A DNA stretch of 64,000 nucleotides, from positions 542,534 through 606,533 of the forward strand of contig JAAOMT010000586.1 in NCBI GenBank assembly GCA_016748015.1. The letters are read 5' to 3'. Made by a program: the position numbers and the translations under genes. Origin of the DNA: Geosiphon pyriformis. Taxonomy: Eukaryota > Glomeromycota > Glomeromycetes > Archaeosporales > Geosiphonaceae. The notes beneath the pieces are model-generated. The model did no database searches and was not told the origin of the DNA. It saw only the letters and a program-made list of their open reading frames with translations. Below, piece by piece: positions 6,873 through 64,000 of this stretch (position 1 is its first letter; the number at the start of each line of letters is the position of its first letter).

Positions 6873-7844
6873 TTTTTTTTTTACGTTTATTGAGTGAAGT
6901 CCAAATACAACCTAGAACTATACATCATACAAATGATTTAAACTAGGTACGAATCATGCTTTTTCTACATGTGACTAGTCACTCAGACCAATCAAAATGA
7001 CACTATTTATTTATATACACAGAGACTACGTTACTAATACCTAAGAGAAACTGACGAGACTTACATAACCCAAAACTAATACTATGTGCATTGGTAATAC
7101 CCAGTAACCTAACCACACCAGCTGAAAGCATCGAAGGAAAACCAGAGACCAAGATGGGAATGGAGCTATCACGTGGAATCAGCCCATTCTTTTTCATAAA
7201 AGCCTGATGTTTGGCCCGAACCAGCCAAAAGCCTTCCTGGAAAGCAACACATAATTCGCATACAAAATTCACTATATTTAAACTTGCAACTTTGGGATCC
7301 TTAAAAACAGAAACTGACTTATCAAACCACTCACTGAATACAAAGCTCTTACACAGAGCAGCACAAATATCCACATTAACAGCACAATCAAATAGTAACT
7401 AAGACACACATGAAGAAGAACGAGATAACCCAAAGCATACCTCCCAAGCAGAAGCATGAGTATTCATCAACCAAACATGATCAGCAGCATCAAATGGGCA
7501 AGAAAAGACATGATCTGAGACTTCAACATCTCCACAGAACAAACACACCACACTGGAATAAAGTCTACTATAAAGATGCTTATGCACAGCAACTGGAAGC
7601 TAATGATGTAAAGCCTTCATGAAATAAGAACAAAGACCAGCAGTCTGCACACTAGTAAAGCCAGCAGCCAAGTGGGAATCTGGATGCCAAACCAATGATG
7701 ACCTGGGCCAATCAATATCAGCATGCAGACTGGCCGCCATAACATGGAAACCAGAACCAACCTTCCAACGTGCACAATGAATAGAATAGAAAACATCATG
7801 AACAAAATGTCTAGAATTACCAGAAATTGCAATATCACCAGCCT
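6873..7844 (-). mobile_element. LINE copy L3, 5'-truncated minus insertion with target-site duplication
   Basis: A short LINE copy inserted into the old LINE L2. On the plus strand it begins with a poly(T) run (the antisense of its poly(A) tail) followed by the family 3' UTR (6885-7010). It then reads into the end of ORF2 (7003-7847 in pieces), including the RNase H C-terminal region and the C-x2-C-x7-H-x4-C motif near 7540. The sequence CATAGTTT is present at both edges (6865-6872 and 7845-7852), as expected for target-primed reverse transcription. The 5' truncation is typical of LINEs. Confidence 0.85.
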
Positions 7845-14100: not shown

Positions 14101-15745
14101 CTGGTAAACAATTTTTTAGTAAGTGTGATAAAGATTTTTATGAATATTGATTTTTCTTTAGTGAACAATCTTCCCAATGCTTTCTGTCATCCTGGTCACT
14201 TTCCAATGCCTTCGATTCTTGGGAAATCTTTATACTTCGATTTTGTTTGTTCTCTTAAGCATTTTGGTGTTGCTTTCGGTGATCAGCTTTTCAATAAAAA
14301 AGGGTTGTTGTTGGATTGGAAGACATTTCGTCATTGGAAGCATTTGGATTCACAGGGTCCTGTGCCTCTTTGGTTCATGGTTGCTTCTAAGTACTTTTTG
14401 GATCAGGGTCTTTTTTTCTCTCGCCCACCTGTTGTTGTTCGATCTGGTGGTGTAAACATTTTGGAGTCTGATGTGTCAAGTGGTGCTGTTGCGTATTTTC
14501 CAGCTCTGGGATTGGGTGTTGGAATCAAAGTTTGTGGCCTGTTATCTTCCACTGTGGTGGAGTTGCAGGCTGTTGCTCTGGCTTTGGAATGTGTTTTCTT
14601 ATCTAGTTCTGTAGTGTTGTATCTTGACAGCCAAGCTGCTATCGATGCATGCATTTCTGAGATGTTGCTTGAGGTACCAGATTTCTGCAGTTGCTGCTGG
14701 GTCGAGAGGAGACATGTTTTCAACTTGATTAAGGATAAGGATCTTAGGGTAAGTTGGGTCAAAGTCAAAGGTCATGCTGGTGTTCTTGGCAATGTGGAAG
14801 CCAATAAATTTGCTGGTGAGGCTGCCTGCTTCTCTTTTGTTTTGCTGATGAAAATACAGGAGTGTTTTTTGGTGGCTGATAACATGGTGGTTTCAGGCAA
14901 TGCCTGCCACTTTGTCAGAGACGTGTTTAGGTCTATTTGTCGTGCTTGTTGGAAGGCTAGTCCTGGTCAGGATGTGGTTTCAGTTGACATGTTGGGGGAT
15001 TTTGATTGGGCTGCTTCTGCAAAGATCTGGCACCCTGACTCTTACATGCTCACTGGGTTTACTAGCTGCAAGTTAGCAGATCTTCGTACATATTTGATGA
15101 AGACATTACATAAGAGGTTGCCAGTGGCTGTCAGAAAGAGGCTGTATAACAGATGTTACCCAGGTGTTCAGTGTTTGTTGTGTGGTGAGCAATAGCCAGT
15201 AATAAGAATATTTCGAGGTGGAGCTGCTTAACCATGTTTTCACTTGTTCACAGGATGTTCATATCCAGGGGAAGATTTTGCTGGAGGCTTCTGCATAGTG
15301 GATCTCTTTGGTTGGTGTTCATGATCTGTTCGCTTCCTTTGTTCTTTAGGTCCTTGATTCTTGTCATTTGGATGTTGGCAGATATTCAGTTTTATGTAAG
15401 AGTTTTGTGTTGAAGGTTTGGTGTATTGAGGCAGCAGGTGTTTTCAATAATGTTAAAAAGGCTTCCTGTGTTGTGATTGACTTTGTAAGGTTTTTGGCTG
15501 AGTTGTACTGATCTAGGGTCTGGTTGGTTAGATCTAGGTTCAGGGCAGACATAGAGAGAGCTGGCTTAGTCAGTGATGATGGCTTGGTGTCAGATCTGTC
15601 CTGTTGTATGTCTTCTGTGCTTTCTGATAATGTGGTAAGAATGTTTGGTATTACTGAGTCTTTTGCTGTCAGTTTTGGCCATCTTAGGCCTTGCCTTTTT
15701 TTTTCAGGTCTGGATGGTAGACCTCGTGTTAATATTAGTGTGTAG
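11121..15745 (+). pseudogene. L4 ORF2: EEP endonuclease, reverse transcriptase, RNase H, broken
   Basis: The EEP domain (11121-11870) has G-G-N-F-N where Asp is expected, and keeps D-T-D-H near 11790. TAG stops at 11673 and 11877 sit where relatives have Trp. A frameshift lies near 12300 and stops near 12577 and 13837. Reverse transcriptase (12589-13839, 416 open codons) has V-L-Q-D-M-R-K-A-Y-D-S and a catalytic box F-V-D-N in place of F-V-D-D near 13430. RNase H (13906-15195) keeps E-L-Q-A and L-D-S-Q-A-A-I-D but lacks the first catalytic Asp because about 38 codons are deleted near 14460. A 28-base insertion at 15189-15216 shifts the frame before the C-terminal zinc motif. The last stop is at 15743. 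Confidence 0.9.
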
Positions 15746-15881
15746 TGTTGCCTAGATTGGCCTGAATGGCTAGTTACATGTTGTCAATATGTAAATCGCA
15801 TTTAGTTTGGACCATTTAGTTTGGCTCTATGTACAAGATAGTGGTTGGGCTTCACTTATTAAATGCTTAATAAAAAAAAAA
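15746..15881 (+). other. L4 3' UTR and A-rich tail
   Basis: About 100 bases here are clearly shared with L5 (30271-30400) and L6 (40382-40524): a T-G-G-C-T-A-G box, then TTTAGTTTGG and a closing GTGGTTGGGCTTCACT-like segment followed by AATAAAAAA. The antisense of the same tail opens L3, the gag-only element G1 and the relic at 54556. It is therefore the likely recognition tail for the LINE reverse transcriptase. Confidence 0.75.
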
Positions 15882-15893
15882 TAAGTTTTTTAT

Positions 15894-18240
15894 TATTAAT
15901 AATATTTTAATTAACAATAAAAAAACAGTGACTATTTCTATTAACCAGAGTGTTAAAACTGTTTTACTAAAAATCAGTAATTTGCTAATTTTAATTGCTA
16001 AAAAAAGTAAATTACATAAATATTTTGAGATTTTTTTGTTAACTAAGAATTTGTTTAAGTTTAATATAGTTCAAGCTTATTTTAATCTTAGGCTTTTTGC
16101 CAATGTAGTGTTAAAAAAGACAATTATAGATAAGCAGTTCTCTTATTTAATATTAACTGTTTTGTAATTTATAATTAATTATTAGTTGTAATTTAGTTTT
16201 GTTTTGTCAAATATGTATTATAAATAAGACATAATAGTCAAAAAAATTTTAAGGCTAAGACCAATTTGCTGTAAAACTTTTTTAATAAAGTATTATATTA
16301 TTTTTTTTTATATAATTTAAAATTTTTTAAGCAGATGTAATCTAAAAGAAAATTGGCTTTAGTAATCACTTTTTTAAATACTTTTAGTATTTTTAAGTAT
16401 TTATTTGATTACAGATTTTTGGATTTACAAATTTTAAGATTGATTTCTTTGAATTTTTACAATTTTTGTCAGATTGTATGTTAATCTAGTGAAAAATTTT
16501 TGGCTAAAGTAATAAAATTTTTTTGAACAATAATTTATTTTTAATAAATAATTTGTCTAATATATTTTATAATTCTTGTATATTTTTAATGTTAAACATT
16601 TTGGAAAAGTTTTTATATTATAGTTTAGTTTATTTTTTAAAATAATTTAAAGTTGTATTTAATAACAGATTTTTAAACAAAAAAAACAATGTGATAAATT
16701 AAAAAACATTTTATTAATAAAAAAAGTTGAATTTTAGAAGCTCTATATTTTACTGATTTGAACTAATATCTAAATTTTTGTGTAATAAAAATTCTTTAAA
16801 AATTGGTTCTGCTAGTATTAATAAATTATATGGTTTGAATATTTTGAATTCTAAAAAGTTTTCTAATATATAGAGATATTTACATAAAATTTGGTTAAGT
16901 CTTATTAAAATATACACAGTTAGATCTTTAAAAAATGCAAATTTGTTGAAATCACTAATAGAGCTACAACATATTTTTTAGTTATAAATATAAATGTTAA
17001 TATTAAAGTATATAGACTTTTGTTTTTTATAATAACTAAATTATAGATTGTTGTTTTGTCTTAGAGATATATTTTATTTTTTTATACAATAATATTGTAT
17101 CTAAATAGCCAAATTATTTTTAATATATATGTGTCTAAGATTATGTTTGCTGTATTAAACTTTTGTAATTAATACTAAATAGAAAAAAAACATATTGCAA
17201 ATTTTAATAAAAAATAAAAATCTCTTGGTTAGATAAATAAAAATTAAAAATTATTCAGAAGTTTTAAGCAATATTAAAGCTAATATAATAATAAGCAAAA
17301 TCACTTATTCTTTCTTTTTTTGTTAATTAGAGTACATAAACATTTTATAGTAATTAAAACTATAGTTATATCTAATAATACTTGTTATTTTGTTTGTAAT
17401 TTATATGGATTTATTTGTTATATTTATTGAAAAGCTAGTTTTATTGACAGAAGATTTATCAATTTGTATATATATTTAATAAAAGCTATATATAAATGGC
17501 TGTCAGTAGTAATTAGAAAAAAATTGTATAATAAAACATATTTAAGTATATTGTATTTGCTATGTAGTAAGATAGAACTGTCAAATTATGTCTTTATTTG
17601 TGCTGAAAATAGTAGTGTTTACAAAAAAATATTGATAAAAACTTTTAAATAGTGAGTGTTATTAGTAAGTGCTTGTACTTTTTCTTTTTTTCTGCTGTCT
17701 TAAAAATTTTTTCAATGTGTTTATTAGATATAAGCTTGTATATAATGGTTTATAAGAAATTTGTGCTAAAAAATTAATATATAAAAACTGTTGTGGCTCT
17801 TAAAAAAAGAAAAGAAACAGTTTCTGTTGTTGTTAAATTTATTAAACAATTGGTAAAATTATATTATTTAAAAATATAGCTTGTAAGATTTAAATATAAA
17901 GTAAATATAAAAAAAACTGGCTTGATCAAAGATAATAAATTGGTATTAAACTTGTCTTGTAATATAAAAACTGTTTTGTTAAATGAAATGGTTTAATTGT
18001 TTAATATTATTAAATCTTTTGAAGTTGGTTTTAATAAATACAAACTGTGTTCTTTTTTTTCTGGTTTAAATAATAATATATATGTTTATATAAATATGTA
18101 ATATTGTTTTGTCTGATTTAAGTAACTGGTTACATATAATAAAAATATGAATTATATTTAGTTTAAGTTATTTAATCTGGTTTTATATACTAAATAGTGA
18201 TTGAATTTTACTTGTAAAAAATTATAATAAAAAAAAATAT
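15894..18240 (+). mobile_element. Old decayed LINE copy L2, segment 3 (end of RT, RNase H, 3' UTR)
   Basis: This continues L2 exactly where segment 2 stopped at 9108. Anchors: 15910-16160 aligns with L4 13520-13780 (N-N-K-K-T-V, A-I-N-Q-S-V-type segments); 17380-17620 aligns with the RNase H C-terminus and keeps a C-S-K-I-E-L-S-N-Y-V-F-I-C segment; 18110-18235 aligns with the 3' UTR. Many stops, no usable frame. Together the three segments form one old LINE invaded twice. Confidence 0.78.
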
Positions 18241-18539: not shown

Positions 18540-19187
18540 ACTATTTTTTATTATTATTATTATGTTTTAACAAAGTGTGCCCAAACACTATCTAATACTA
18601 TGTACCACTAAGAAATTATAAATTAGACGTGAATCACACATTTTCTACATGTGACAAACTACTCGAGTCAGTCAAAGCACTAACTAAGCTGAAACAATAG
18701 GAGGTGGAAATAATCCCAATCCACAAATTTTTTTAATAACACTATTTAGATTCCTAGAATCAAAAATAAACTCACTAAAAAATAATCTAGTAGATTCAAC
18801 ACTATTTCTAACCTTAACACCCAACATCCGCCACAAAGCTATAATACACTCAATAGTGTCTTCACTTAAGAGAGAAGGTTTGACAGCCTGCATATTATTA
18901 TAATTCATGCCACCAAAGTCAATTTTAGATCTAAAACAAGCAATGTCCTTAGACACACCAACCAAAAGATTGGCAAAATTTTTAAAAACATATTTTATAA
19001 AAAGGAGATCTTTCTCAATCTAAACCACTTTAACAGCATTATTATCAAGAAGACAAGATACCAAAACAACCAAAGAGCCAACAGGCTTAACAATAGACTT
19101 TACCAAAGCAGCCAAAACCAAAATCTGCTTTTCCAAAAAGTTCAATCTGAACCCAACAGCAGAATCAACTATAGCCACAGGAGGGGT

Positions 19188-20169
19188 TGTTACCAGACGA
19201 AATTAGAGATATCATTTAGCATGAAACTATCTTATAATTCCTATCATTAATTAGCATATATTATCATTTCAAATTATCACTTATTACATTAACAAAAATG
19301 TCCGAAATTATCATTTAATTAATAATCCAAATTGTACACAACACAAATGTAACCTAATTGCGATAATCAATCATGTAATACCCCAAACTATATAACATTC
19401 AAAAATTCGCTGAAATTTATAGAAATTTGCTGAAATAATTGATAGTTCACCAAAATATCTAATAGTTTACAGAAATAACTTGTAGTTTGCTGAAATGTAT
19501 CTTTAGTTCAGCAAAATTGTAGAAAATAGCAAAGTTCAAGTTCATAAAATAGTGTTACAACAAGTTGTATAAAAGAAGAGCTTCTCTCTTCGAGAAAATG
19601 TATCTTTCTTTAGATTTATCACTTAGAACCATTCCTATACACACAAAAAGAAATAAATATTAAATAATTCAAAAAAACCAAATTCTTTAATTATTGTACT
19701 TGGAAAATCCCCAAAAATCCAACTAACATCTCGAAATTGATTAGCTACCAATTTCAGTAAACTGTTAGTAACTCCAGGCCTGGATAGAAAACGTTTCTCT
19801 TGACAAAAATTCTATTTCTTTTACATTTCTTTTATTTTTCTTTTATTTTCTTATTACATTCATTAGGGTAGTCTACAGACGAGATTCCTGTAGAAAAGTT
19901 GACTTTCACAGCAAAGTAACTACACATTTTTAGTAAGCTTCCAAATGAGCAATTCCTGGGAAAGAGTTGATGTTTACTACAATGTAACTACATAAAGTAA
20001 CTGGCACAGAATTGGCCATTCCACTTATAAGCCCAGCAGTTCAAATTATAGAAGATAATTTGAAGATAAATTCAGTTACTGGAGGTTCAACCACATTCAG
20101 AAAATGTGAATTCACAGCAAACAGACATTAACAACATTTAGAAAAAGAGACCAAAAACCTCTGGTAACA
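19188..20169 (+). mobile_element. Solo LTR (copy T2), 982 bp, with 4-bp duplication
   Basis: It starts TGTTACCAGA and ends TCTGGTAACA, a perfect 10-base inverted terminal repeat of the TG...CA type. GGGT flanks both sides (19184-19187 and 20170-20173). Inside is a TATA box (19568-19575) and, about 80 bases later, an AATAAA (19652-19657), fitting a U3-R-U5 layout on the plus strand. No internal coding region is attached, so it is a solo LTR left by recombination. Removing it with one GGGT restores an open frame in the G1 gag-like gene. Confidence 0.88.
19568..19575 (+). promoter_or_regulatory. TATA box of the LTR promoter
   Basis: TATAAAAG lies roughly 380 bases into the LTR, followed by a short GAAGAG/CTCTTC inverted repeat and then, at 19652, an AATAAA. 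This spacing is what is expected for an LTR promoter and polyadenylation signal. In T3 the region is too decayed to judge. Confidence 0.5.
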
Positions 20170-21839
20170 GGGTGGAAGCCACCAAAAGAGAAAATTCAGA
20201 CATAACAGAGGGAGCAAATGTCTTAGCATAGAACAAAAAACCAACAAAATGTGGTTTGAATATTATGGGAGTCTTAGGAAAGGAAGATGAAGCAACTTCA
20301 CAGTCAGCAACCAAATGGCCCAATTTTTAACACTTAAAACAATGCTGATAACCAGAGGTTTCTTACCAAATATGGCACTTCTTTAGTGTACTAGTTTTGA
20401 CAACAGCAAAATTCAAATCAGCTTGAGAACCAAATGTAATCAGAGCAAACTGGAAACAATGACCAAATTTAAGAAAATAAGAAATAAAGCATGTTCAATC
20501 ACCAACTTGAGAAATCGTATTACTAATCTCAAAAGCTGTGCATCCAGAAGAAAAATTGACCAACTTGGCTTTAAACTTATCACAAGACAAAATAGTCTCA
20601 TTTTGATTCACCAGAAGAAGGATTCTAACACTATCCTTGTCCACCAAGACAGACCAATAATTCAAAATAGACACAGCAGAGTTCAACATTTCAAAATAAA
20701 CCACCACATACTGCTAAACACCAGCAGACTTCAGCACAACATAAGTGATACTACCAAACACACTGAGAGCCATCTTAATATCAACAGCAGACACACTTAA
20801 GGGCACATCACACAGCGCAACAGCAGCAGAAGAGGAACCAGACTCAGAAATCACCAAAGACTTGGCAATTTTGAGAGTGGCCAAATGTACAAAGCTTGTA
20901 AGCTCGACCAAAAATGCAGTTTTCAAAGACACTTGAGAAGCAAACTCCACACAAAACAGCTTCATATTGTCTTTTGACACTGACTTTGCACCCAAGAAAC
21001 CATGTACTGACTGAAAAACAGCCTTAACATGAGCCAATTTGATCTTGAAAATAGCACCAAGCATCAGAGTAGAGGCCACCCACCCAATAAACTTTTAATG
21101 ACTAGTAATAGTTTCTCAAACACCACCAGAAATAGCACCAGAAACTAAAGGAGGAGATGATTCAGTTTCCATTTGATCAGCCCAGTTCTCAAGAACAGAT
21201 AACCCAACAGGAAGAAATTGTTTTGCTTCTAAAACCAGCAATGATCTACTAAAAGACATCACATTTGGCAACACAGCCAGTGATTGATCTTGGCCCATCT
21301 TGGATAATGTGTCAGATGATGCTATGGAGATCTCATCTAAGATCTTATTGGGAACCACAAAGGAGTTCAGTGTAACAATAGCAAAGGCAAGTAACTGCTC
21401 CCACTTTTCTGAACTTTTGGTCTTTTTGATCATTTTCTTTGAAGAGGAGGTGCTAGAAGCACCAAATATTGAAGCTATAGAGGGGAACACCAGCTTATTT
21501 ACTGGTTTATTATTAAAAATTTTTGGGCTCTTTAAAGGAGTTAAGGCAACACTGAGACTAATCCAAATGTGTCTCTTTGAGAGAACTTTGACTGATAAGA
21601 AACCAGCCAAAAATGAAAAAGTTGCTTCAGTGGCTATCAAAGGCAGCTTTTCACAATTACTGGATAAAAAGAAGGCTTCTAAAACGTTTTGTCTAGTTGT
21701 TTTTACAACAGAGACAGCTTTTCTGATTGAAATTTTATTAGATATCTTAGGACAGATATCAGATACAGCTTTTTTACTCTTTGTTCTGATTATGGTCATA
21801 AAATTAAGGAGACAAAGAGTTTTTTTTTACTATTTTTTT

Positions 21840-22199: not shown

Positions 22200-22815
22200 T
22201 ACTTTGAAAATTTGGTTTAATTTAATTTAGTTTATTGAATTTTATTTATAAATATTTTGTTTTTGTTATTTTTGGTCTTATAAATTTCTATTTTTGTGTT
22301 TTTAATAATGTTTTGTATATTGTTTTTTATAAAAGTTTTGTTTTTAAAATATAATTTGCCAAAACTGTATTAATTTTCAAAAATATTAAATTAATATATT
22401 TGTATTTAATTATTTATACATAGTAATTAATATTAAATTACAAAAAAAAAGTGTAATTATATAGATTTAAGTATAAAGTTATAATAAAAAAAGTGATTTA
22501 ATTAATAATAATAAGTTTATTATATATAATTTATGTAATTTATTAGATAATTTGTTTGATAAAATTGTTTATATACTTAATATTATTAAATTTTTTACAG
22601 TTGGTTTTAATTACACAATAAATATTTGTTTTTTTTAATCTAAATAATAATATTAATATTTTTATAAATATATAATATAATTTTAATTAGCTCAAATAGT
22701 TAGTCATATATAATAAATTTATAAATTATATTTAATTATAAATACTTAGTTTGTTTATATATACTAGGCAATAATTAAATTATATTTATTAAATATTTAA
22801 TAAAAAACACTTAAT
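22200..22815 (+). mobile_element. Decayed LINE 3' fragment
   Basis: The stretch 22250-22400 aligns with the end of ORF2 of L6 (39960-40110), and 22620-22810 aligns with the shared 3' UTR (TAGTCATATATAA, then TTTAGTTTGT-like and ACTAGGCAATAATTAAA-like segments). It is almost fully converted to A/T. The 5' limit is uncertain. Confidence 0.6.
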
Positions 22816-23616
22816 ATTTTTAAATTATTAAAAAATAAAAAACTTGTTTAAATTTTAATTATATTATAAACAATATTATATTTTTAAATTTAAAGTTTAA
22901 ACTTTTTAAGTATATATAAATTTAAAAAATAAAAAACTTTTTTAAAGTTTATTTAAAACCCAAAATTTTATAAAATAATAGTAAAAAATAAAAGATAACT
23001 TAAATAAATTAATTTTATTTATTACTATAAAATGTAATTTAATAAATATAATTTTTAAATGTTTTTTAAATTTTTATGTGTTTAATTATACGTAAAAGCC
23101 ACCCAAAAAAAATTACAAAAAGTTTACAAACAATATTTAAAGACAATACAAAATCATGTGATTTTTTCAAATTAATATTAAACAGTATTTAAAGACAGTA
23201 TAAAATTATACAATTTTTTTAGATTAGTATTAATAAGTTATATTAATTATAATTAGTTATATATAAATATAATTTATGATTAAAATATCTATCTATATAT
23301 TATAATAATTAGTTTTACAATGATAATTAAAATAATAATAGCATTTAAAATTAGAACAATTGAGAAGAATCAAATATTTTTGCACATTTGAATATTTTTT
23401 ATAATTAAATATTTTTATATAATTAAATTTTTTAATTAAAATAATTAGAATAAAACTTGTTATATTAATAAAATATACAAATATATATACTAAAAAAATT
23501 AGAAAAAGATGTTTTAAATATTATATATAATAAAAAAGTTTTTATTTACAAAATTTTAATTATATTATATTATATTATTTTAATTATATATTAAAATTAA
23601 AATTAAAAAAAAAAAC
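22816..23616. other. AT-rich spacer upstream of LINE L5
   Basis: About 800 bases with no gene that I can support. The only structure I recognise is a short tandem duplication at 23131-23236. The last part grades into the leader of L5. Confidence 0.5.
23131..23236 (+). repeat. Imperfect tandem duplication, about 52-bp unit, two copies
   Basis: CAATATTTAAAGACAATA at 23131 recurs as CAGTATTTAAAGACAGTA at 23183, and the sequence that follows (a T-run and AAATTAATATTA / AGATTAGTATTA) also repeats. The spacing is 52 bases. Probably a local duplication in old repeat DNA. Confidence 0.6.
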
Positions 23617-28500: not shown

Positions 28501-30270
28501 GGTTCTTGGATGGACATTTTTGAATCTATTGCAGTTTCCAGTTAAGCTGCTCATTAGTCCTGTGAACAATTTTTTAGCTGGTGTGGTCAAAATTTTTTTG
28601 GATTGTGAGCTGTCTTTGGTGGGCTTTCTACCTAGTGCATTTAGGAACTCTGGTAATTTTTTTATGTCTGAGATTTTGGGAAAATCCTTGTTTTTTAGTT
28701 GTGCTTGCTCTTTGAAGTGTTTTGGAATTGCCTTTGGTAACAGACTCCTTGAAAAAAAAGTGCTGTGATGGATTGGAAGACTTTTTGTCATTGGAAGAGG
28801 CTTGATCTCAGGAGCCCTGTGCTTCACTGGTTCAATGTCACATCGAGGTTTTTGCTGAATAGGAGTTCAGTGCCACCTGCTGCTGTTAAAGCTGGTGGTT
28901 TTTCAGGCTGTAGCATTTTGGATTCTGAACAGTTTGCTTTTGTGTATAATAGTCTGCTTGAAGTTTGGTCTGGCTCTTTTGATGTTTATATTGATGGTTT
29001 GTTGAAATTTGCTGGCTCACCCAGTGTAATTAATGGGGCTGCTGCTTATTTTCTTGCTTTGGATTCAGGAGTTGGTATTGGTGTTCATGGGCTTTTATCT
29101 TCAACTTTATCAAAATTGCAGGCTGTGGCTTTTGCTCTGAAATGTGTTCCTCCCTCCTATGCAGTGGTTTTGCATCTTAACAGCCAAGCTGCCATTAATG
29201 CATGTGTGTCCGAATTAGCTTTTGCTGTTCCTGATTTTTGCAATTATTATTGGATTGAGAGAAAATATATTGCCAATTTGATTAAGGATAAAGATCTTGC
29301 TGTAAATTGGGTTAAGGTCAAGAGTTATTTTGAGGTCTCTGGTAATGATAGAACAGATATGCTGGCTGGTGAGGCTGCTGGCTCTTCTTTTTCTTTGCTG
29401 GCTGGGATTTGTGAGTGTTTTTTGGTGCCTGAGAGTACTGCAATTTTAGGTAACCCTTATCACTTTGTTAGAGATGTTTATAGATCTATTTGTCATGCTC
29501 ATTGGGAGACTGGTCCAAGTCATAATGTGGTTCTAGTTGCTTCATTGCAGAGTTTTAATTGGATTGCTTCTGCACAAGTTTGGCATCCCGACTTGCACAT
29601 GCTTGCTGGGTTTACCAGCCATAAGTCTGTGATTCTTCACATATACTTGATAAAGGCTCTACACAGAAGGCTGCCAGTGGCTGTCCGCAAAAAGTTATAT
29701 GATAAAAGTTATCCTAGCATGCAATGTTTATTGTGTAGTGAAGTGGAATTGCCGGACCATGTCTTCATCTGTTTATGAGATGTTTATATTCAGGGGAACA
29801 TTTTGTTAGAGGTGTCTGTTCATTGAATTTCTCTGGCTGGTGCTTGTGACTTATCTTTTTCCTTTGTCTTGAGGACTCTTGATCTTTGTCATTCAGATGT
29901 CAGCTTGTACTCTGTTATGTGTAAAAGGTTTGTGCTTAAGGATTGGTGTACAGAGGTGGTTGGCATTTTTGGTGATGTTAAGAATGCTACTAGTGTGGTG
30001 GTTGACTTTGTAAGATATTTGGTTAAGTTGTATTAATCCAAGATGTAATTAACAAGATCTAAATTTAGAGTAGATATGTAGAGGGCAGGCTTAGTTGGTG
30101 ATGATGGTTTAGTAGTGGGTCTTTCTTGTTGTGGGTCTTTTATGCTTTCAGATGGAGTGGTCAGATTGCTTGGTATTATAGAGTCTTTTACTGAAAGTTT
30201 TAGCTATTGCAGACCTTGTTTTTTTTTTTCTGGTTTGGATAGTAATCTGCATATTGTTTTAAGTGTGTAG
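25597..30270 (+). pseudogene. L5 ORF2: EEP endonuclease, reverse transcriptase, RNase H, broken
   Basis: The EEP domain (25620-26387) is the best preserved here: it retains G-G-D-F-N-E-N near 26036, but the last catalytic His is Tyr (D-M-D-Y). The pre-RT region is open for 221 codons (26409-27074). Reverse transcriptase is broken by stops near 27190-27330 and 27740, but keeps F-V-D-D near 27890. The connection (28256-28768) and RNase H (28765-29778) follow, with Y-I-D-G, L-N-S-Q-A-A-I-N (two catalytic positions doubtful) and G-N-D-R-T-D. The terminal motif C-L-L-C-x7-H-V-F-I-C is intact near 29730-29770. Confidence 0.88.
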
Positions 30271-30400
30271 TGTTGTCTTGTCTGGCCCGAGTGGCTAGCC
30301 ACATGTAGAGAGTGCGTGAATTGCGCTTAGTTTAAACCACTTAGTTTGGTTCTATGTACTAGGTAGTGGTTGGACTTCACTCATTAAATTGTTTTAATAA

Positions 30401-30950: not shown

Positions 30951-31938
30951 TATTAGCAAAGATTTTTTTATTTTTTTTAATGTTATTAATGCTATTTGTT
31001 ATTAATTTTGCTGTTAATAGAAATCAGTAAATTTCTAATAAACTAATATTTTTTTAAAGTATTTTTTATACTTTAAATTATATATGCTATTGGACTTATA
31101 ATAAAATAACCAATTTTATGCCAATTACTTATATAGTTATTTTGCAATGAAAGTTAATTCTTTTACAAAAAATTTTTATCTATAAGCTTTTTAAAAATAT
31201 GTATGATTACTTTACTGTAAAAATTAATTTTTCTACAAAAAGTTTTGATTGTAAATTATTTAATGATATTAAAAAAAATAAATAAATAAAAAATAAACTA
31301 AAGAAAAAAAAAATATGGCAAAAAAGTTATTTTAAATTCAGATCTGAAAGTTATTACTAGTTTATTAAAATTAATAGCTAATTAATTTTAAATTATTAAT
31401 ATAAAATAGTTAATTTTGAAGCAATAATAATTAAGAAATTTTATGTTTTTTAAATAAGTTTTATTGATTAATTTTTAAAAAAAATTATTCTAAAAAAGAG
31501 TATCTAATAAATAATAATTTTAAATTAAGATATATTTTCTTAAAAAAAAATCTTTTTTTATATAATTTATTATAGTACTATTTTATAATTTAACACTTTT
31601 TTTTTTAATATTTTGGTAAACTAAAAATATATTTCATTAAACTACAAGTTATTTTTGTAAATTATAGATTATTTTAGTAAACTATTAAATATTTCATCAA
31701 ATTATTAAATATTTTAATGAATTTTAAATATTATATAGTTTAGTATATTACATAATCTAATTATTATAATTTGGTTATATATGTGTTCTGTACAAATTAG
31801 GTTATTAATTAAATAATAATTCAGATAATTTAATAAAATAATAAGTAATAAATTAAAATAATAATATATATTAATTAATAATAAAAATTATAAAAATAAT
31901 TTTATGCTAATTAATATCTTAAATTTCAATTGATAACA
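30951..31938 (-). mobile_element. Decayed LTR copy T3, about 988 bp
   Basis: Reading the reverse complement of the intact LTR T2 along this region gives an alignment over its whole length: 30951 TATTAGCAAAG against TGTTACCAGAG; 31095-31260 against the segment at 19880-20040; 31630-31930 against 19188-19500; and the end TTGATAACA at 31930-31938 against CTGGTAACA. Length is 988 against 982. Most differences turn G or C into A or T. Flanking 4-mers are ATAA and ATAG, compatible with a mutated duplication. No internal LTR-element coding sequence was found beside it. Confidence 0.75.
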
Positions 31939-33632
31939 ATAGACTGTTTTGAATAAAAATGATAATATTTGAATGATTTAATCTTTTAAAACTTAGTATA
32001 ATTATAAACTTTTTTTTTATCACAAGTTTACTGTTTTTATCAATATTAACTTCTTAATACAGAATAAAAAAAGCTAATTTATATGATGTTTAGAAGTAAA
32101 AAATCAATTAAATTAATTGTTAATACAATACATTAAAAGTATAGTACTATATACACAAAAAATATTATTAATAAACATGGCCAAATTAGAAATACTCTAA
32201 ATAAAAGTTTTAATTATAATATTACTATATAGTTTTTACAAATATTAAAAAATAAATATGTAATTTTTTATATATTATCAAAAGATAATTATATACAAAA
32301 CTTGTTCTTTATAAATATTAAAGTTGTATATCAAATAATTATATATTCCGAAGTGTTTATAATAAATACAACATATAAAACAAACTTATATAAGCTTTTT
32401 TTTGTTAATATTATTGATGTTAATAATATTGACAATACTAAAGTTTTTAATAAATATCAAATTACAATAGCATAGATAATAAATAAACAAAAATTAAGCT
32501 TTTTAAAATATAACAAACAATATTTTTTCAAAAACAAAAAAAATACTCTGTATTTAGCATATGTTTATATAAAACTTATAAACTATATGCTAAAAGTTTT
32601 TTGATTCTAATAAAAATTATAATAAATTTTTGTTATTGGTTTAACAAATTGCTTATGCTAAAAAAATAAATACAGTTAAAAAAATGTTCAATAAAATAAA
32701 ACAAACAACAATAAAAAATAGAAATCTTAATTATATTCAAAATTATTTTAAAAAATAGAAAAAAGATGTAAAAGATTGAATACATATTTATATAAAAAAT
32801 TATTTACATATAAAAATTTAATTAATACAGTAAATAAAAAAAAGCCATAATAATTTAAAAAAGATAATAAAGACAGCAAGTAGCTTAAAACAGATATTGT
32901 TAATAACAATTATAAATAAATAAAACTTTTAATTTAAATATTGTTTCTGTTAATTTATTTATATATAACAATAAAAAATTTGAATAGTTGTTTAAAAAAA
33001 TTTTCAGATAAATAATTAATTAAATAAAAAAAACATGTAAAACTAAAAACAATAATATTTGTAAATACAGTTTAAGATTAAATTTTAAGTTATTATGTTT
33101 TATATATCTTTGTTAACAGAGTCTATTTTACTTTTTTTATATATTTTTACTGTTTTTAAAGCATAATTTAATATTATTATTGTCTTTATTATTATTATTA
33201 ACTAAAATAGCCATCAATAAAACTTTATATTAACTTGAAAAAAAATATGAATTTCTAAATAAATATAAATTAAAAATCATATTCTCGCAAAAAATTAAGG
33301 TTTTAACTGTTAAAAAAAATATAGTTTCAAAAACATTATTGTATATTATACTTAAAAAGCAACTAATATCTACCAAATAAAATTTTTTTCTTAATAAACT
33401 TTAGAATAAAGCTATTATAAAAATTATTACAACTTTTATATTATAATCAAATACTTATTTATATACATAAATATATAAAAATAGTAATAAATATGAATAA
33501 CAATAATAATTGTGAATACAGAGTATTAGTTATATATTTAAAAAAAATAAAAGCAAATAATCAGAAATAAAAAAAAAATTAATTAAAAAAAACAATTCTA
33601 TTAATTATTATTTCTTGTTAATAATAATTATT
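31939..33632. other. AT-rich desert, nothing recognised
   Basis: About 1.7 kb without a gene and with no repeat I could align to the other copies by eye. By analogy with the rest of the window it is probably an unrecognised decayed transposon, but that is a guess. Confidence 0.4.
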
Positions 33633-38700: not shown

Positions 38701-40381
38701 GATTCTTTTGGATTGTGAGTTGTCCTTAACAAACATTCTGTCCAGTGCTTTTAGGGATCTTGGTGTCTTTCTTATGTCTGAGATTTTAGGAAGGTCCTTG
38801 TTTCTCAGTTGTGTTCGTTTTTTAAAGTGTTTTGGAGTTGCCTTTAGTGACTGACTCCTTGACAAAAGAGGTGCTGTAATAGACTGGAAGACTTTTTGTC
38901 ATTAAAAAAGGCTTGATCTCAGAAGCTCTGTGCCTTATTGGTTCAGAGTTATGTCAAGGTTTTTGCTGGATAGGAATTTAGTGCCACTTACTACTGTTGG
39001 AGCTAGTAATTTTTTGGGCTGTAGTGTTTTGGATTCTGAGCAGTTTGCTATGATACATGATGGTCTGCTTGAGGTTTGGTTTGGCTCTGTCAATGTTTAC
39101 ACTGATAGTTTGTTAAAATTTGCTGGCTCCTCTAGTGTAATTAGTGAGACCGCTGCTTATTTTCCTGCTTTGAATTCAGGAGTTGGCATTGGTGTTCATG
39201 GGCTTCTGTTTTTGACTTTATCAGAATTGCAGGCTGTGGCTCTTGCTCTGAAATGCATTCCTTCTTTTTGTTCAGTGGTTGTTCATCTTGACAGCCAAGC
39301 TGTTATTGATGCGTGTGTATTTGAATTAGCTTTAGCTGTCCCTGATTTTTGCAATTGTTATTGGGTTAAGAGAAAACATATTGTCAATTTGATTAAGGAT
39401 AAGGATCTCACAGTGAGTTGGGTTAAGGTCAAAGGTTATTCTGGAGTTTCTGGCAATGATCGTGCTGATGCACTGGCTGGAGAGGCTGCTAGATCTCTCT
39501 TTTTTTTGCCAGCTGAAATTTGCAAGTGTTTTTTGTTGGCTGAAAATACTGTGGTTTCAGATAATGCTTGTTACTTTGTCAGAGATATTTTTAGATCTGT
39601 TTGTTGTGCTTGCTGGGAGGCTGGTCCAGATTGTAACATGATTTTGGTTGTTCTATTGCAAAATTTTGATTGGGTTGTTTCCACACGGGTTTGGCATCCT
39701 GACTTGCATATGTTTGCTGGGTTTACCAGCAGGAAATCTGTGATTCTTTGTACATACTTAATAAAAGCTTTACACAAAAGACTGTCAGTAGCTGTTCACA
39801 AAAGATTGTATGATAAAAGTTATCCTGGCATTTGGTGTTTATTGTGTGGTGAAGTGGAGTTGCTGGACCATGTTTTCATCTACTCATGGGATGTTTATGT
39901 TTGGGAGGATATTTTGTCAGAAACATCTATGTATTGGATCTCTCTGGCTGGTGCTTGTGATTTGTTTTCTTTCTCTGTTTTAAAGACTCTTGATTTTTGT
40001 CATTTGGATGTTGGCTTATATTTAGTTTTGTGTAAAGAGTTTGTGTTTAAGAATTGGTGTGTAGAAGCAGTTGGTGTTTTTGATAATGTTAAGAGTGCTT
40101 CTAGTGTAATTATTGACTTTGTTAGATATTTGGTTGAGTTGTATTGATCTAAGATGTAGTTAGTGAGGTCCAAATTTAGAATGGACATAAAGAGGGTGGG
40201 TTTGGTTGGTAATGACGGTTTGGTGTTAGGTTTGTCACATTGTGTATCTTCTATACTATCTAATAAAATAATCAGACTGCTTGGCATTATGGAGTTATTT
40301 GATGTAAGTTTTGGCTGTTACAGGCTTTGTCATTTCTTTTCTGGTTTGGATGGTTCTCCATGTGTTGATTTGGGTGTATAG
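35712..40381 (+). pseudogene. L6 ORF2: EEP endonuclease, reverse transcriptase, RNase H, broken
   Basis: The start ATG at 35712 is in the ATGA overlap. The EEP domain is frameshifted near 35840 and 36000; the G-G-D-F-N box reads S-E-N-F-N, while D-T-D-H is kept near 36350. The RT part (37193-37825, then 37827-38200) has V-L-K-G-M-S-T-Q and a catalytic box F-V-D-N near 38000. The connection region is 38219-38854. RNase H is open from 38930 to 40147 (405 codons) with Y-T-D, E-L-Q-A, L-D-S-Q-A-V-I-D and G-N-D-R-A-D, so all four catalytic acids appear present. The terminal C-L-L-C-x7-H-V-F-I motif has its last Cys changed. Confidence 0.9.
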
Positions 40382-40531
40382 TGTTGCTTTGTCTGGCCTA
40401 AGTGGCTAGCCATATATAAAAAGTGCGTGAATCATGTTTAGTTTGAACCACTTAGTTTGGTTCTATGTACTAGATAGTAATTGGACTTTGCTTATTAATT
40501 GCTTTAATAAAAAAATAAAATATAAGATGAT

Positions 40532-54555: not shown

Positions 54556-54720
54556 TAATATTTTTTTTTTAACATTTAACGAATGAAGCCCAAAAGCCAC
54601 CTAGTACAATACATTAAACTAAGTAATTTAAACTAGATATAAATCATGTATTTTTTATATATAATCAGTTACTAATAATATTTATTTAATAATCTTTAAA
54701 ACTAACAATTATAAATAAAT
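54556..54720 (-). mobile_element. Decayed LINE-type 3' tail
   Basis: The plus strand begins with a T-run and AACGAATGAAGCCCAAA..., then TTTAAACTAGATATAAATCATG and TAATCAGTTACTAA. These align with the antisense 3' UTR of L3 (6873-7000). The element body that should follow at higher coordinates is not recognisable, so it may be 5'-truncated or a gag-only copy. Confidence 0.6.
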
Positions 54721-56600: not shown

Positions 56601-56879
56601 TTTTTGGTTAACAATACACATAAAAATCTTAAAATAAAAAAAATTTAATTATTATAATAAATATTATTAAAAGTTATGTTTATTATTTAACTAATTTGTT
56701 TAAAAATTTTGTTAATCTTAAAACTAAGATAAAATTTAATAATATAGATAAGAATAAACTTACATAAAAACCAAATATATTAATGTTATTATAGTTATAT
56801 TTAGCTTTAATATAATTATTTCTTGTTTTAACTTACTAATAGCCTTATTAAAGACTTTCATATATAGTAAAACTTTATT

Positions 56880-57652
56880 AACTTTAAGATTAAAACACTG
56901 CTTAAAATAAGATCTTTTTTAATAAATTGTTTAAAAACAATAACTAAAAAACCAACAGACTTAGTAATAAATCTAACCAATATAGTTAATTTGACCAAAT
57001 TAGCTTCTAAAGAGGTCAACTATAAGAAAACCAAAAAATCACTAACAATTACAAAAAAGAAAACAAAAGTTATTAGAAGTAAAAACTTAAAAAAGCTCAA
57101 AAAAGCAGAAGTTTTAACATAAAACTTAGCACTTATAAAACATGATATAAATATTTTAGAAACCTTAAAAGATGAAAATAAAAATACTTTATAGTTTATA
57201 ATTAAATAATCTATTTTTTAATATTTAAAACAATATTAACAACTAAGAGTTTTTTATAAAATATAATATTTTTTTAGTATATTAGTTTTGAATACTATAG
57301 TATTTAAATCAACTTAAGATTCAAATATAATTAGAGCAAACTAAAAATAATAATTAAAATTAAAAAAGCAAAAAATAAAACATGTCTAATTATTAACTTA
57401 AGAAATTATATTACTAATCTTAAAAACAATATAGCCAAAAAAAAGATTAATTAATTTGGCTTTAAACTTATTATGAGACAAAATAATCTCATTTTGATGA
57501 TTAAAAAAAAAATTCTAATACTATTTTTATTTACCAATATTAATCAATAATTTAAAGCAGATACAATAGTATTTAGTTTTTTAAAATAAACAACAACATA
57601 TTACTAAACACTAGCAGATTTCAATATAATATAAATAATCTTATTAAACTTA
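56880..57652 (-). mobile_element. Gag-only element copy G3, 3' part, decayed
   Basis: The minus strand aligns with G1. 57240-57650 matches 20330-20750 (RRM end to knuckle), and 56930-57060 matches 19040-19187. G3 has no LTR at the site where G1 carries T2, so it preserves the empty site. The Tc1/mariner element starts at 57653; G3 resumes at 59010. Confidence 0.72.
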
Positions 57653-59007
57653 CAGAGAGGTATAAAAAGTATTGGACACTTAATATAATATATAAAAAAG
57701 GCTATATATAATAATATTATTACCAATTTAAGCCATAATTTTTTTTATAATTACTTATAGTTATAATCTACAAATCAACATAAATTGCGTCCTTATAAAA
57801 CACAACAGTGGATCATATGCATATATATAAAATATTAAATATTCTTGTCATAAAAAAATTTACTACATCAAATGTGTCTTGAAAAAAAACTTTCTGAATA
57901 CCAAAAAGAAGAAATTATTTCAACAATAAAGTTAGGACATACAAACAGTAAGATTTTTATAACTATTGAATGTTTATATTCTTCTGTAATATGTATATGA
58001 AAGTTATATAAGCTAAAAAAACTTCCTAAAAAATGAATGGGCTGACCACAAATTCTTGACAAATGTGTATATAAACAACTCAAATATTCAATAATAGAGA
58101 ATAAAAAAACCTGCCACCAAATTTTTTCTTAAATATGATTAAATTTTATTAAAGATACTAACAAATCTATTTCTATACAAACTATTCAAAATGAATTAGC
58201 TCAAGAAGGACTTTGCTCATACATTTCTTATCTCAAGCCATTAATTTTCAGATTAAATAAAGAAAAATGTTTACAATAGGCTTATACTTATGAAAATTGG
58301 ACAGTAGAAGATTTTAAATGAGTTGTTTGGTCAGATGAATCTACATATACACAATTTAGGACTACAGAATTTGGATGTGTATGGCATAAACTTTCCAAAA
58401 AGTTTCATAAGAATTGTATTACAGCCATAATTAGAAAAAGCTTTGGTCATATGTTTTGAAAATGTTTTTTATGGATTGGTTTGGGTTCTTTAGTTCTTTT
58501 GGTTGATCATATTACTGGAGTTATACACTATGAAACCTTGGCTAATTATGCAATTCCTATGGTAAAACTTTATGCAAAAAAAACTAAAAAAAAGTTTTTT
58601 TTTCAGAAAAACAATGCACCAATCCATACATCAAAAGTTGCGCATTTTTTTCTTATCTCTTTAAATGTTGAATTACTTCTTTGACCAGTACAAAGTCCTG
58701 ATATTACTTTAATAGAAAATTTTTGGTCATATATTGAAGTTAAAATTTATCAATGTAATTCACAACTCTCAAATATTGTATAATTGGAACAGTAGATTAA
58801 GGAAGAATGGAATGTGATATCTGTAAATTACTATTGTAATTTGATCAAGTCTATGCCATGTCAAGTTCAAGCTATTTTTAAAGCAAATGGGGGTCAAACA
58901 AAATACTAACATGTATTTTAATATAATAATAAAAAATTAATAATTCATAAGTTAGTTTTTTTATATAACATATTATAAAAGTATCCAATACTTTTTATAC
59001 CCCTCTG
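57653..59007 (+). mobile_element. Tc1/mariner element, 1355 bp, with TIRs and TA duplication
   Basis: Terminal inverted repeats of about 30 bases: CAGAGAGGTATAAAAAGTAT at 57653 and its near-exact reverse complement ending CCCTCTG at 59007. TA is present at 57651-57652 and 59008-59009. It encodes a transposase remnant on the plus strand and sits inside the decayed gag-only copy G3, so it arrived after G3. Confidence 0.9.
57872..58909 (+). pseudogene. Tc1/mariner transposase remnant (DDE), broken
   Basis: From ATG 57872 to TAA 58907-58909 is 346 codons, the usual Tc1 length, but with stops and frameshifts. The N-terminus (L-S-E-Y-Q-K-E-E-I) fits a helix-turn-helix DNA-binding region. V-W-S-D-E-S near 58325 holds the first catalytic Asp. 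The second should be in F-Q-x-D-N-A-P but reads F-Q-K-N-N-A-P (codon AAC at 58610-58612), so Asp is lost. Q-S-P-D-I-T-L-I-E-N-F-W near 58690-58725 holds the last acidic residue. The end G-G-Q-T-K-Y is typical. Not able to transpose by itself. Confidence 0.85.
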
Positions 59008-59009
59008 TA

Positions 59010-60030
59010 CTAAATACTGTTTTAATATTAGCAGCAAACATATCTAAAAACATATTATGTAGCATAATAACAGCAAAAGAGAAACCAGTTTTAAAAATTA
59101 CCAAAAACTTGGCAATTTTAAGAGTATTTAAACAAACAAAGCTTATAAACTCAACCAAAAAAGCAGTTTCTAAAAACTTTTAAAAAGCAAATTTTATATA
59201 AAAAAGCTTTATATTGTTTTTTAATACTAATTTCACATTCAAAAAACCATGCACAAACTTGAAAACAGTTTTAATATAAGCTAATTTAATCTTAAAAATT
59301 GCATTAAACACCAAAGTAGAAGTCATTTATCTAGAAAACTTTTAATAATCAATAATAATTTTTTAAGCACCATTAACAACAGCATTAAAAACCAAAGAAG
59401 CCAATGATAAATTAGTTTCTATTTGGTTAATCCAATTCTTAAAAACAGATAACTTAACAAGAGACTGTTGTTTTGCTTCTAAAATAAGCAAAAATCCGCT
59501 AAAAAATATTATATTTGGCAATACAACTAGCAGTTAATTTTGGTCTATCTTAAATAATATGTTAAATAATATATTAAAAATTTTATTCAAGATTTTATCT
59601 AAAATCACAAAAGAGTTTAATATAATAATAGCAAAAACAAATAGTTGTTCTTATTTTTTGAAATTTTTAGTCTTTTTGGCTATTTTTAAAGAAGTAGTAT
59701 AGTTAGGAAAAAGAGCTTATTAACTAGTCTACTATTAAAAACTTTTAGGCTTTTAGTAGAAGTAAAGACAATATTAGGACTAATTTAAGTATGTTTTTTT
59801 GGGAGAACTTTAATTAGTAAAAAACTAGTTAAAGATAAAAAAAATATTTTAGCAGTTACCAAAAACAGTTTTTTACTATTATTATTTAAAAAAAAGCTTC
59901 TAAAACATTTTGTTTAACTGTTTTTACAACAGAAAAAACTTTTTTAATTGAAACTTTATTAAATATCTTAAAAGAAATATTAGATACAGCTTTTTTGTTT
60001 TAATTATAGTTATAAAATTAAAAAAACAAA
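59010..60030 (-). mobile_element. Gag-only element copy G3, 5' part, decayed
   Basis: The minus strand aligns with G1 from 20760 to 21830. 59590-60030 matches 21360-21830 base by base over long stretches, including the ORF start region and the 5' A/T-rich leader. It is the continuation of 56880-57652 across the Tc1 insertion. Confidence 0.75.
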
Positions 60031-60221
60031 AATTTTTTTTTTAAGTAATAATATTATTAATTGTTTAAAAATATGTGGTCTTAATATTAGAAATAGTATT
60101 AAGAAAACTAAATTATTTTTTAGTAAATTTATTTTTATTAGTTAAAATTTAAATAATATTATAAAAAAACTTAGTAGACTAAATTTATTTTTAATCTTTT
60201 TTAATTTAATTTAATTAATAT

Positions 60222-60350
60222 TTTAATTAATTCAAATAGTTGATTACATATAAAAATATGTTTAATTTAAGTTATTTAATTAACATATTATATTAAATAG
60301 TATTTGGATATATTTTGTTAAAACTTAATAAAAAAAACAATAATATTAAT
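60222..60350 (+). mobile_element. Decayed LINE 3' UTR fragment
   Basis: CAAATAGTTGATTACATATAAAAATATG, TTTAATTTAAGTTATTTAATT and TAAATAGTATTTGGATA match the order of the shared LINE 3' UTR (30290-30380). The rest of the copy is not clear upstream. Confidence 0.55.

Positions 60351-62230: not shown

Positions 62231-64000
<1,770 letters not shown>

What the first reader, a model, noticed from the sequence alone, without database searches (positions are those of the whole stretch)
18550..21828. A gag-only retroelement that carries an RRM-CCHC protein and the LINE 3' tail
The unit encodes an RNA-binding gag-like protein but no endonuclease, RT or RNase H, and ends in the same 3' UTR as the autonomous LINEs nearby. 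Its 5' end also has a LINE-like pyrimidine tract. A 10-bp duplication (ACTATTTTTT at 18540-18549 and 21829-21838) shows that the whole unit inserted in one event. Non-autonomous elements parasitising LINE tails are known (SINEs; ORF1-only elements such as HAL1), but an element with a different gag-like protein joined to a borrowed tail is unusual. It could be a trans-mobilised element that supplies its own RNA-binding protein. At least three copies are in this window.
Basis: partly seen in the sequence, partly recalled or inferred. Interest (0 to 1): 0.75.

Follow-up and report, generated by a model that had tools for sequence, protein, structure and literature searches.

The report
Gag-only retroelement with swappable LINE tails
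A 2.3-kb jumping gene, present in hundreds of copies in this genome, makes only an RNA-binding protein and ends in a folded RNA tail shared with the genome's complete LINE elements, and its copies have traded such tails at the end of their gene.

Summary
Largely confirmed, with corrections. The window unit (minus strand, 21828-18550, 10-bp target duplication) is a decayed copy of a ~2.29-kb retroelement, lengthened by a foreign 980-bp insert. Its 5' terminus has 434 genome matches, control 0. Intact copies carry one 701-708-aa ORF with RRM and CCHC domains over nearly the whole unit, so the LINE-type tail is only ~140 nt. In 21 of 21 copies read to the end, gag runs straight into the tail without RT. 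The gag is a distant homologue of local LINE ORF1s (23-30% identity). The tail fits a covarying four-way RNA junction shared by both LINE clades sampled and all element types; the stop TAG of gag and of LINE ORF2 lies in its base stem. Tails are exchangeable: T3-type gag carries T3 (11) or T1 (8) tails, T1/T4-type carries T1 (8) or T4 (6), switching within ~20 nt of the stop in five chimeras inspected. Between T1, T2 and T4 subtypes gag is under purifying selection. Most likely it packages its own RNA and is mobilised in trans by LINE ORF2.

The parts
18550..21828 (-). Whole unit in this window (gag-only element copy W1, T4 tail type) including a foreign insert; element sequence about 2.3 kb
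21829..21838 (.). Target-site duplication, 5' side of the element (ACTATTTTTT)
   Evidence: read directly
18540..18549 (.). Target-site duplication, 3' side of the element (ACTATTTTTT)
   Evidence: read directly
21800..21828 (-). 5' UTR: A-run, then ACTCTTTGTCTCCTTAATTTT; a 27-nt pattern of this terminus has 434 genome matches at up to 3 mismatches (control 0)
20169..21799 (-). gag coding region, first part: N-terminus, RRM-like domains, CCHC knuckle; open to 21116, then broken by several stop codons in this copy
19189..20168 (.). Foreign 980-bp insert with inverted terminal GTTACCAGA, not part of the element; similar DNA at window 1-282 and 31091-31939
18684..19188 (-). gag coding region, second part (C-terminus), ending in stop TAG at 18684-18686 (minus strand)
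18567..18692 (-). 3' four-way-junction tail shared with LINEs (model R1, E 7e-23); includes the gag stop codon near its 5' edge
18550..18566 (-). 3' terminal TAA/AAT repeats
56822..60043 (-). Second, older copy of the element, with an insert at about 57660-59021
60017..60308 (+). Third, decayed fragment: gag C-terminus (60017-60178) and a weak tail match (60221-60308, E 0.048)
30262..30387 (+). LINE B (clade I) tail, same fold (E 3e-29)
40373..40498 (+). LINE C (clade I) tail, same fold (E 2e-26)
15737..15862 (+). LINE A (clade I) tail, same fold (E 3e-23)
6887..7011 (-). LINE E (clade II) tail, same fold (E 3e-25)

Best explanation
This is a gag-only relative of LINEs: a 2.3-kb non-LTR retroelement whose only gene is an ORF1-type RNA-binding protein (RRM-like domains plus CCHC). 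Shown: many copies with constant ends, flanking repeats in part of them, intact ORFs in some, purifying selection on gag between the T1, T2 and T4 subtypes, a folded 3' tail shared with two autonomous LINE clades, and exchange of tails at the gag stop codon. Inferred: the gag coats the RNA that encodes it; a LINE ORF2 protein (endonuclease, RT, RNase H) recognises the folded tail, nicks AT-rich DNA and copies the RNA in from its 3' end (target-primed reverse transcription). Also inferred: template jumping near the stop codon makes chimeras with a new tail, which could let one gag lineage use another LINE's machinery.
For: One ORF spans about nt 30-2153 of a 2.25-2.32-kb unit and is uninterrupted in L066, L067 (708 aa) and L068 (701 aa). 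Pfam RRM_1 and zf-CCHC are above cut-off in L066. Homology to 14 of 14 LINE ORF1s compared, E 4e-12 to 2e-25, collinear; a low-confidence model (pLDDT 46.7) whose top Foldseek matches are tandem-RRM proteins. gag runs straight into the tail in 21 of 21 copies read to the end. The 40-pair tail fold: 87.3% of cells paired against 31.5-41.0% for slid versions and 81.0% for shuffles, 171 double-change cells against a shuffled mean of 75.5 (0 of 500 as high for both); elements 83.3%, LINE I 93.9%, LINE II 85.5% separately. dN/dS in five pairs between T1, T2, T4 and T4b types 0.40-0.47 against neutral simulation 0.69-0.74. gag C-terminus x tail table over 52 loci: T3-T3 11, T3-T1 8, T1/T4-T1 8, T1/T4-T4 6, T2-T2 9, T4b-T4 1; the switch lies within about 20 nt of the stop codon in five T3-T1 chimeras inspected. 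Four loci with a tail end but no gag or LINE upstream (L087, L088, L096, L100) read best as 5'-truncated copies, as copying from the 3' end would give.
Against: No mobilisation was observed; use of LINE ORF2 is inferred from shared tails. Flanking repeats are weak in this AT-rich DNA: 7 of 18 copies have an exact repeat of 9 bp or more with at least 3 letters, against 17 of 306 mismatched pairs (p 0.012), and one of the seven (L071) is a homopolymer artefact. Ten of 15 dN/dS pairs show no clear constraint (within-type pairs, pairs with T3, the window copy). The fold was drawn from these same sequences, which favours it over slid controls, and two of five measures (pairs with a double change 23 vs 21.5, further pair types 61 vs 60.2) do not exceed the shuffles. 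Copies were chosen by similarity and searches score only the best candidates (40 of 1034, 40 of 458), so an RT-bearing relative with a diverged gag could be missed. Of the 37 T1 tails none is known to sit on a LINE, so no LINE donor for T1 is identified.
Confidence: 0.8

Rival explanations
1. HAL1-like deletion product: an unsampled autonomous LINE clade carries this gag plus EN-RT, and the 2.3-kb unit is its internal-deletion derivative.
For: HAL1 arose from L1 several times (PMC5753468, passage). The LINE survey covers only part of the candidates (103 of 6005, 150 of 4452 and 150 of 4162 scored), so a further clade is possible; L089 is a diverged LINE 3' end (38% to clade I) whose tail is nearest T3.
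Against: 21 of 21 copies read to the end lack ORF2. All 14 LINE ORF1s compared (ten fetched LINEs, window LINEs A-D) are only 22.6-30.3% identical to the gag. gag evolved under constraint between several subtypes that, as far as sampled, lack ORF2.
Confidence: 0.25
2. The gag-tail chimeras arose by DNA-level gene conversion or ectopic recombination between copies, not by template jumping of the reverse transcriptase.
For: Copies are abundant and 77-92% identical over nt 1-1200, so conversion tracts in the body are plausible.
Against: Around the junction the two parents are dissimilar: the chimeras are 35-62% identical to T1 in the 400 to 20 nt upstream (apart from 55-57% in the first bin of some) and 53-80% to T3 downstream, poor substrate for homologous recombination. 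Template jumps are proposed for R2 (PMC3414825, abstract).
Confidence: 0.25
3. A domesticated or effector-like gene family derived from LINE ORF1, like EKA genes of Blumeria, spread passively as retrocopies.
For: EKA has more than 1350 homologues derived from LINE ORF1, and an RT-RH region was found downstream in one of 34 fragments searched there (PMC4641428, abstract and passages).
Against: The unit has constant 5' and 3' ends and a conserved folded tail and retains CCHC, which the EKA effectors lost; copies of one type diverge without sign of constraint.
Confidence: 0.06
4. The gag serves LINEs as a helper protein (a mutualist) rather than mainly its own RNA.
For: The shared tail fold means that gag and LINE particles could mix; not tested.
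Against: All ten fetched LINEs carry an ORF1 of their own, intact in L016.
Confidence: 0.08

Closest known systems
HAL1 (half-L1) elements of mammals
   Same: Non-autonomous, encodes only ORF1p (PMC5753468, passage seen).
   Different: HAL1 is a derivative of L1; here gag is only 23-30% identical to the LINE ORF1s sampled. L1 is thought to recognise 3' poly(A) (PMC3747384, passages seen); here there is a folded tail followed by TAA/A repeats. Tail exchange is not a HAL1 feature I know of (recalled).
HeT-A of Drosophila telomeres
   Same: Abundant non-LTR element with a Gag that does not encode an RT, so RT must come from elsewhere (PMC5537684, passages seen).
   Different: HeT-A transposes to chromosome ends; the window copy is inside a contig (about 561-564 kb, of 1,048,006 bp) and flanked by a target duplication.
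SINEs with LINE tails (stringent-type LINE/SINE pairs)
   Same: Recruit LINE machinery through a shared 3' end, with a stem-loop in stringent types (PMC3747384, abstract and passages seen).
   Different: SINEs are short and non-coding (recalled); this element encodes a 708-aa protein under selection between subtypes.
R2 and R2/R1 hybrid SIDEs of Drosophila
   Same: Non-autonomous elements that join a 5' module to another element's 3' end; template jumps proposed (PMC3414825, abstract seen).
   Different: SIDEs are described there as a 5' ribozyme plus a 3' end in rDNA, without a gene.
EKA family of Blumeria (from LINE ORF1)
   Same: Very large family derived from a fungal LINE ORF1 (PMC4641428, abstract and passages seen).
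   Different: EKA effectors lost the half with the CCHC domain; shared folded tails and module exchange are not described in the parts I saw.
Reticulate ORF1 evolution in the Jockey superfamily
   Same: ORF1s are modular and evolve reticulately (PMC4120745, abstract and outline seen).
   Different: That concerns ORF1 types of LINEs; here 3' modules, including tails cut at the stop codon, are exchanged between gag-only elements.

Membership tests
HAL1-like ORF1-only LINE derivative | Encodes an ORF1p-type protein and no EN/RT | tested here: met
   701-708-aa RRM/CCHC ORF, gag runs into the tail in 21 of 21 copies read to the end
HAL1-like ORF1-only LINE derivative | ORF1 closely derived from an autonomous LINE of the same genome | tested here: not met
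   22.6-30.3% identity to 14 of 14 LINE ORF1s compared; LINE census incomplete
HeT-A | gag-only non-LTR element | tested here: met
HeT-A | Insertion at chromosome ends | tested here: not met
   window copy is internal to its contig with a 10-bp duplication; other copies not mapped to chromosome ends
SINE | 3' end homologous to a LINE tail | tested here: met
SINE | Short and non-coding, with a pol III promoter | tested here: not met
   2.3 kb with a 708-aa ORF; pol III boxes were not searched
LINE ORF1 family (RRM-CCHC type) | RRM followed by CCHC, collinear with LINE ORF1 | tested here: met
Autonomous LINE | EN-RT ORF2 | tested here: not met
R2/R1 SIDE-like tail hybrid | 5' module joined to the tail of another element | tested here: met
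   tails exchanged between element types; a LINE donor is not shown
EKA effector family | Loss of the part with the CCHC domain | tested here: not met
   zf-CCHC retained
Trans-mobilised element | Mobilised by LINE ORF2 in trans | not testable with these tools
   needs a retrotransposition assay

The most novel reading that the evidence does not exclude
A coding parasite that shops for LINE machinery: one gag lineage persists by repeatedly exchanging a detachable recognition cassette (stop codon plus folded RNA) that plugs into the RTs of different LINE clades. Translation termination of gag and recognition by the RT share the same nucleotides (TAG in the base stem), so gene and tail are separable exactly there.
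Probability: 0.4. Interest if true: 0.8.

Novelty: new variant of a known kind. Interest (0 to 1): 0.62.

Why it matters
Among the papers seen here, only HAL1 and HeT-A are comparable gag-only LINE relatives. This one keeps an ORF1-type gene under selection between subtypes although, as far as sampled, every enzyme must come from elsewhere, so it is a natural test of what ORF1 does for its own RNA. The shared, covarying 3' junction gives a concrete RNA target for LINE RT recognition, and the natural set of tail chimeras (same body, different tails) is a ready panel for asking whether the tail alone decides which LINE mobilises an RNA. The host species was not identified; if it belongs to a group with many unclassified repeats (as in R. 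irregularis, where 32% of the genome was unclassified repeats; PMC8647823, passages), elements of this kind may explain part of them.

Tried and rejected
Rejected: that 19189-20168 is part of the element (absent from 13 of 15 fetched copies, the two others being uninformative there); that the 640-nt 3' region is a LINE tail (mostly gag C-terminus); that the gag is unrelated to LINE ORF1; that the '2092-aa open frame' listed at C117 is a longer RT-bearing version (the stretch begins in a run of N); that L018:1-770 is another gag family (reads as a decayed copy of the same element); that T1 tails were clearly taken from LINE clade II (they group there at 90/92, unstarred; one origin of all element tails is not rejected, AU p 0.43 with 72 rows and p 0.13 with 81 rows, although none of 200 bootstrap trees has one origin). 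Rfam gave nothing for five tail-bearing loci at E up to 1. The ten literature searches listed no gag-only LINE with exchanged tails in fungi; I saw listings of 0 to 25 titles each, one search returned none, one search was badly phrased and returned mostly mathematics, and subscription papers are not in the library.

Rows dropped or chosen before counts: E_L009 and the window fragment at 60323 from the tail trees (deletion, decay); the L004 tail from the trees and A1 (cut by my fetch); L087, L088, L096, L100 from the last tree (5'-truncated). For the structure alignment A1 I gave 43 of 67 tails available as loci (all 19 element tails, every second LINE: 14 clade I, 10 clade II); no window sequence was in it. 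LINE stretches were hand-picked from the hit lists; 'clade I' and 'clade II' are named by which query found them and by tail type, not by an RT tree. In one search the tail references held no LINE, so the LINE ends L089 and L093 were labelled T3 and T1 there; L093 is nearest LINE I (82%) and L089 nearest T3 (79%, LINE I 74%).
Full report
What is there. The unit at 18550-21828 lies on the minus strand and is flanked by the 10-bp repeat ACTATTTTTT. Comparison with 15 copies fetched from the same genome (10 chosen by the ORF, 5 by the 3' region) shows an element of about 2.29 kb (2246-2321 nt in the 14 whose ends I set). The window copy is longer because of a foreign 980-bp insert (19189-20168) with inverted ends GTTACCAGA. 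The first searches reported 1034 candidate places for the ORF and 458 for the 3' region, of which 40 each were scored. A 27-nt pattern of the 5' terminus has 434 matches at up to 3 mismatches and none when reversed.

Coding content. The gag frame is recognisable in the fetched copies, broken by stops or frameshifts in most. It is uninterrupted in L066 and L067 (708 aa from ATG) and L068 (701 aa), running from about nt 30 to nt 2153 of the unit. Only ~28 nt of 5' UTR and ~140 nt of 3' UTR remain. RRM_1 and zf-CCHC pass Pfam cut-offs in L066 and fall just below in L067. The C-terminus looks coiled-coil; that was not tested. Of 23 fetched copies gag runs straight into the tail in all 21 that could be read that far; L004 and L070 were cut by my fetch windows. 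By Pfam the LINE L016 has endonuclease, RT and RNase H domains, and its proteins match window LINEs A-D.

The gag is a LINE ORF1 homologue. tblastn of the gag finds the ORF1 of all ten fetched LINEs and of window LINEs A-D at 22.6-30.3% identity, E 4e-12 to 2e-25; the alignment is collinear through the RRM-like region and the CCHC. A clade II ORF1 (window LINE D) matches the clade I LINEs L016-L019 and L024 at 53-56%, so the gag lineage is more distant from both than they are from each other. An AlphaFold model from window sequences is poor (pLDDT 46.7) but shows an RRM-like order of strands and helices twice, and the top Foldseek matches are tandem-RRM proteins.

Selection. dN/dS (NG86, 12 simulations a pair, 15 pairs). 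Between subtypes: L067-L003 0.40, L067-L012 0.40, L067-L010 0.47, L067-L001 0.44, L003-L010 0.43, against neutral simulations of 0.69-0.74 (sd 0.04-0.08). Within types it is not below neutral: 0.71, 0.61, 0.86, 0.88, 0.67 against 0.64-0.67. L067-L006 (0.90 vs 0.82) and L067-L072 (0.88 vs 0.90) show no constraint; L006-L003 is 0.58 vs 0.82 (sd 0.11), L006-L010 0.71 vs 0.81, L067-W1 0.51 vs 0.65 (sd 0.10). So copies of one type diverge about neutrally, while the lineages leading to T1, T2 and T4 kept the gag; for T3 this is not shown.

The tail. 3' UTRs of 31 clade I and 21 clade II LINE copies and of all element types align over ~118-140 nt. A 40-pair four-way junction fits 87.3% of cells on 43 tails, against 31.5-41.0% when slid and 81.0% in shuffles; 171 cells are double changes against 75.5 in shuffles, and the covariation score is 0.412 against 0.303 (0 of 500 shuffles reach any of the three). 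Two other measures, pairs with a double change (23 vs 21.5) and further pair types (61 vs 60.2), do not exceed the shuffles. By group: elements 83.3%, LINE I 93.9%, LINE II 85.5%, slid about 36-38%. A covariance model from these 43 tails, none from the window, recovers the window copy and four LINE ends at E below 1e-22. Columns 8-10 of the alignment are TAG (T and A invariant, G nearly so). This TAG is the gag stop (L006 2624-2626) and the ORF2 stop of LINE I (L018 7620-7622) and LINE II (L022/L046), by comparing. The cassette therefore starts at the stop codon, and its base stem contains it.

Tail exchange. Along the element, all types are 77-92% identical over nt 1-1200. Over nt 1650-2160 T1 and T4 are 87-88% identical, T2 78-82% to either, T3 only 33-59% to the others. 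In the UTR T1 and T4 drop to 63%, while T4 and T4b (L010) are 83% although their C-termini are about 70%; within types the UTR is 86-88%. Synonymous divergence agrees: L067-L003 dS is 0.18 in the N-terminus, 1.20 in the linker-CCHC part and 0.52 in the C-terminus. A genome pattern for the T1 tail gives 37 hits, control 0. By position, 23 of them belong to elements (one of these, on C346, only by a 5' end 3.1 kb upstream). I fetched the other 14: 8 carry T3-like gag C-termini (76-80% to L006), 5 carry T1/T4-type, and L087 shows neither gag nor LINE. In five chimeras inspected, identity switches from T3-like (83-93% against 55-62% to T1 at -50 to -20) to T1-like (85-90% against 55-70% to T3 at 0 to +20) around the stop codon; further down they stay nearer T1 except L082 at +110 to +150 (T3 77, T1 69), with L080 undecided at +20 to +60 (80, 82). 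The T3 pattern gives 47 hits, control 0. Of 14 fetched, 7 carry T3 gag, 4 are LINE 3' ends with related tails (L089, L091-L093) and 3 show neither and read as 5'-truncated. Over 52 loci the gag-by-tail table is T1/T4-T1 8, T1/T4-T4 6, T2-T2 9, T3-T1 8, T3-T3 11, T4b-T4 1, T2-none 1 (cut), no gag 8. All four combinations of two gag types with T1 or other tails occur, which needs exchange.

Origin of tails. In the last tree T1 tails fall with LINE II (90/92, not starred), and the element label needs four changes, but one origin of all element tails is not rejected (AU p 0.43, 0.13). Of the 37 T1 tails none is known to be on a LINE. So exchange among elements is shown; borrowing from LINEs is not.

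Integration. Repeats of 9-14 bp flank several copies. A control with mismatched flanks gives 7 of 18 against 17 of 306 at 9 bp or more with at least three letters, p 0.012, one of the seven being a homopolymer artefact; AT-only repeats such as L006's 14 bp were excluded by that filter. LINE B, L020 and L024 show 12-13-bp repeats near their ends, uncertain in such AT-rich DNA.

Comparison. HAL1 encodes only ORF1p (PMC5753468, passages). HeT-A has no RT (PMC5537684, passages). SINEs use LINE tails in stringent systems (PMC3747384, abstract and passages). R2/R1 SIDEs are tail hybrids and R2 may jump templates (PMC3414825, abstract). EKA derives from LINE ORF1 (PMC4641428, abstract and passages). 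The present element combines a gag gene under selection with a detachable LINE-type tail, which I did not find in the listings of the ten searches made. I file it as a new variant of a known kind. The host species was not identified.

Noticed in passing
19189-20168: 980-bp element with inverted ends GTTACCAGA inserted in the gag; similar DNA at 1-282 (92%) and 31091-31939 (70%, inverted).
   Followed up: partly
15880-18218 (+) and 22260-22831 (+): Strongly AT-decayed LINE stretches with recognisable tails (18093-18218, 22667-22792).
   Followed up: partly
54576-54680 (-) and 61553-61654 (+): Further matches of the tail model (E 4e-8 and 8e-4); the second follows a LINE ORF2 fragment, the first has no identified body.
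   Followed up: no
L018:1-770: Very old, AT-decayed copy of the same element next to a LINE, so the element seems to have been active over a long time.
   Followed up: yes
L089 (G000:C358:659857-660637): Diverged LINE 3' end (38% to clade I) whose tail is nearest the element's T3 tail (79%; LINE I 74%): a possible further LINE clade or tail donor.
   Followed up: partly
L070: Copy with a partial internal duplication near the 5' end (about nt 91-346).
   Followed up: no
L004: Copy with a ~0.9-kb insert inside the gag that contains a repetitive reading frame.
   Followed up: no
L087: Last ~60 nt of a T1 tail joined to an unrelated, partly open reading frame; a truncated insertion or a template jump.
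   Followed up: partly
44441-45043 (-), 49324-50109 (-), 63381-63995 (-): Open reading frames that look like host genes rather than repeats.
   Followed up: no
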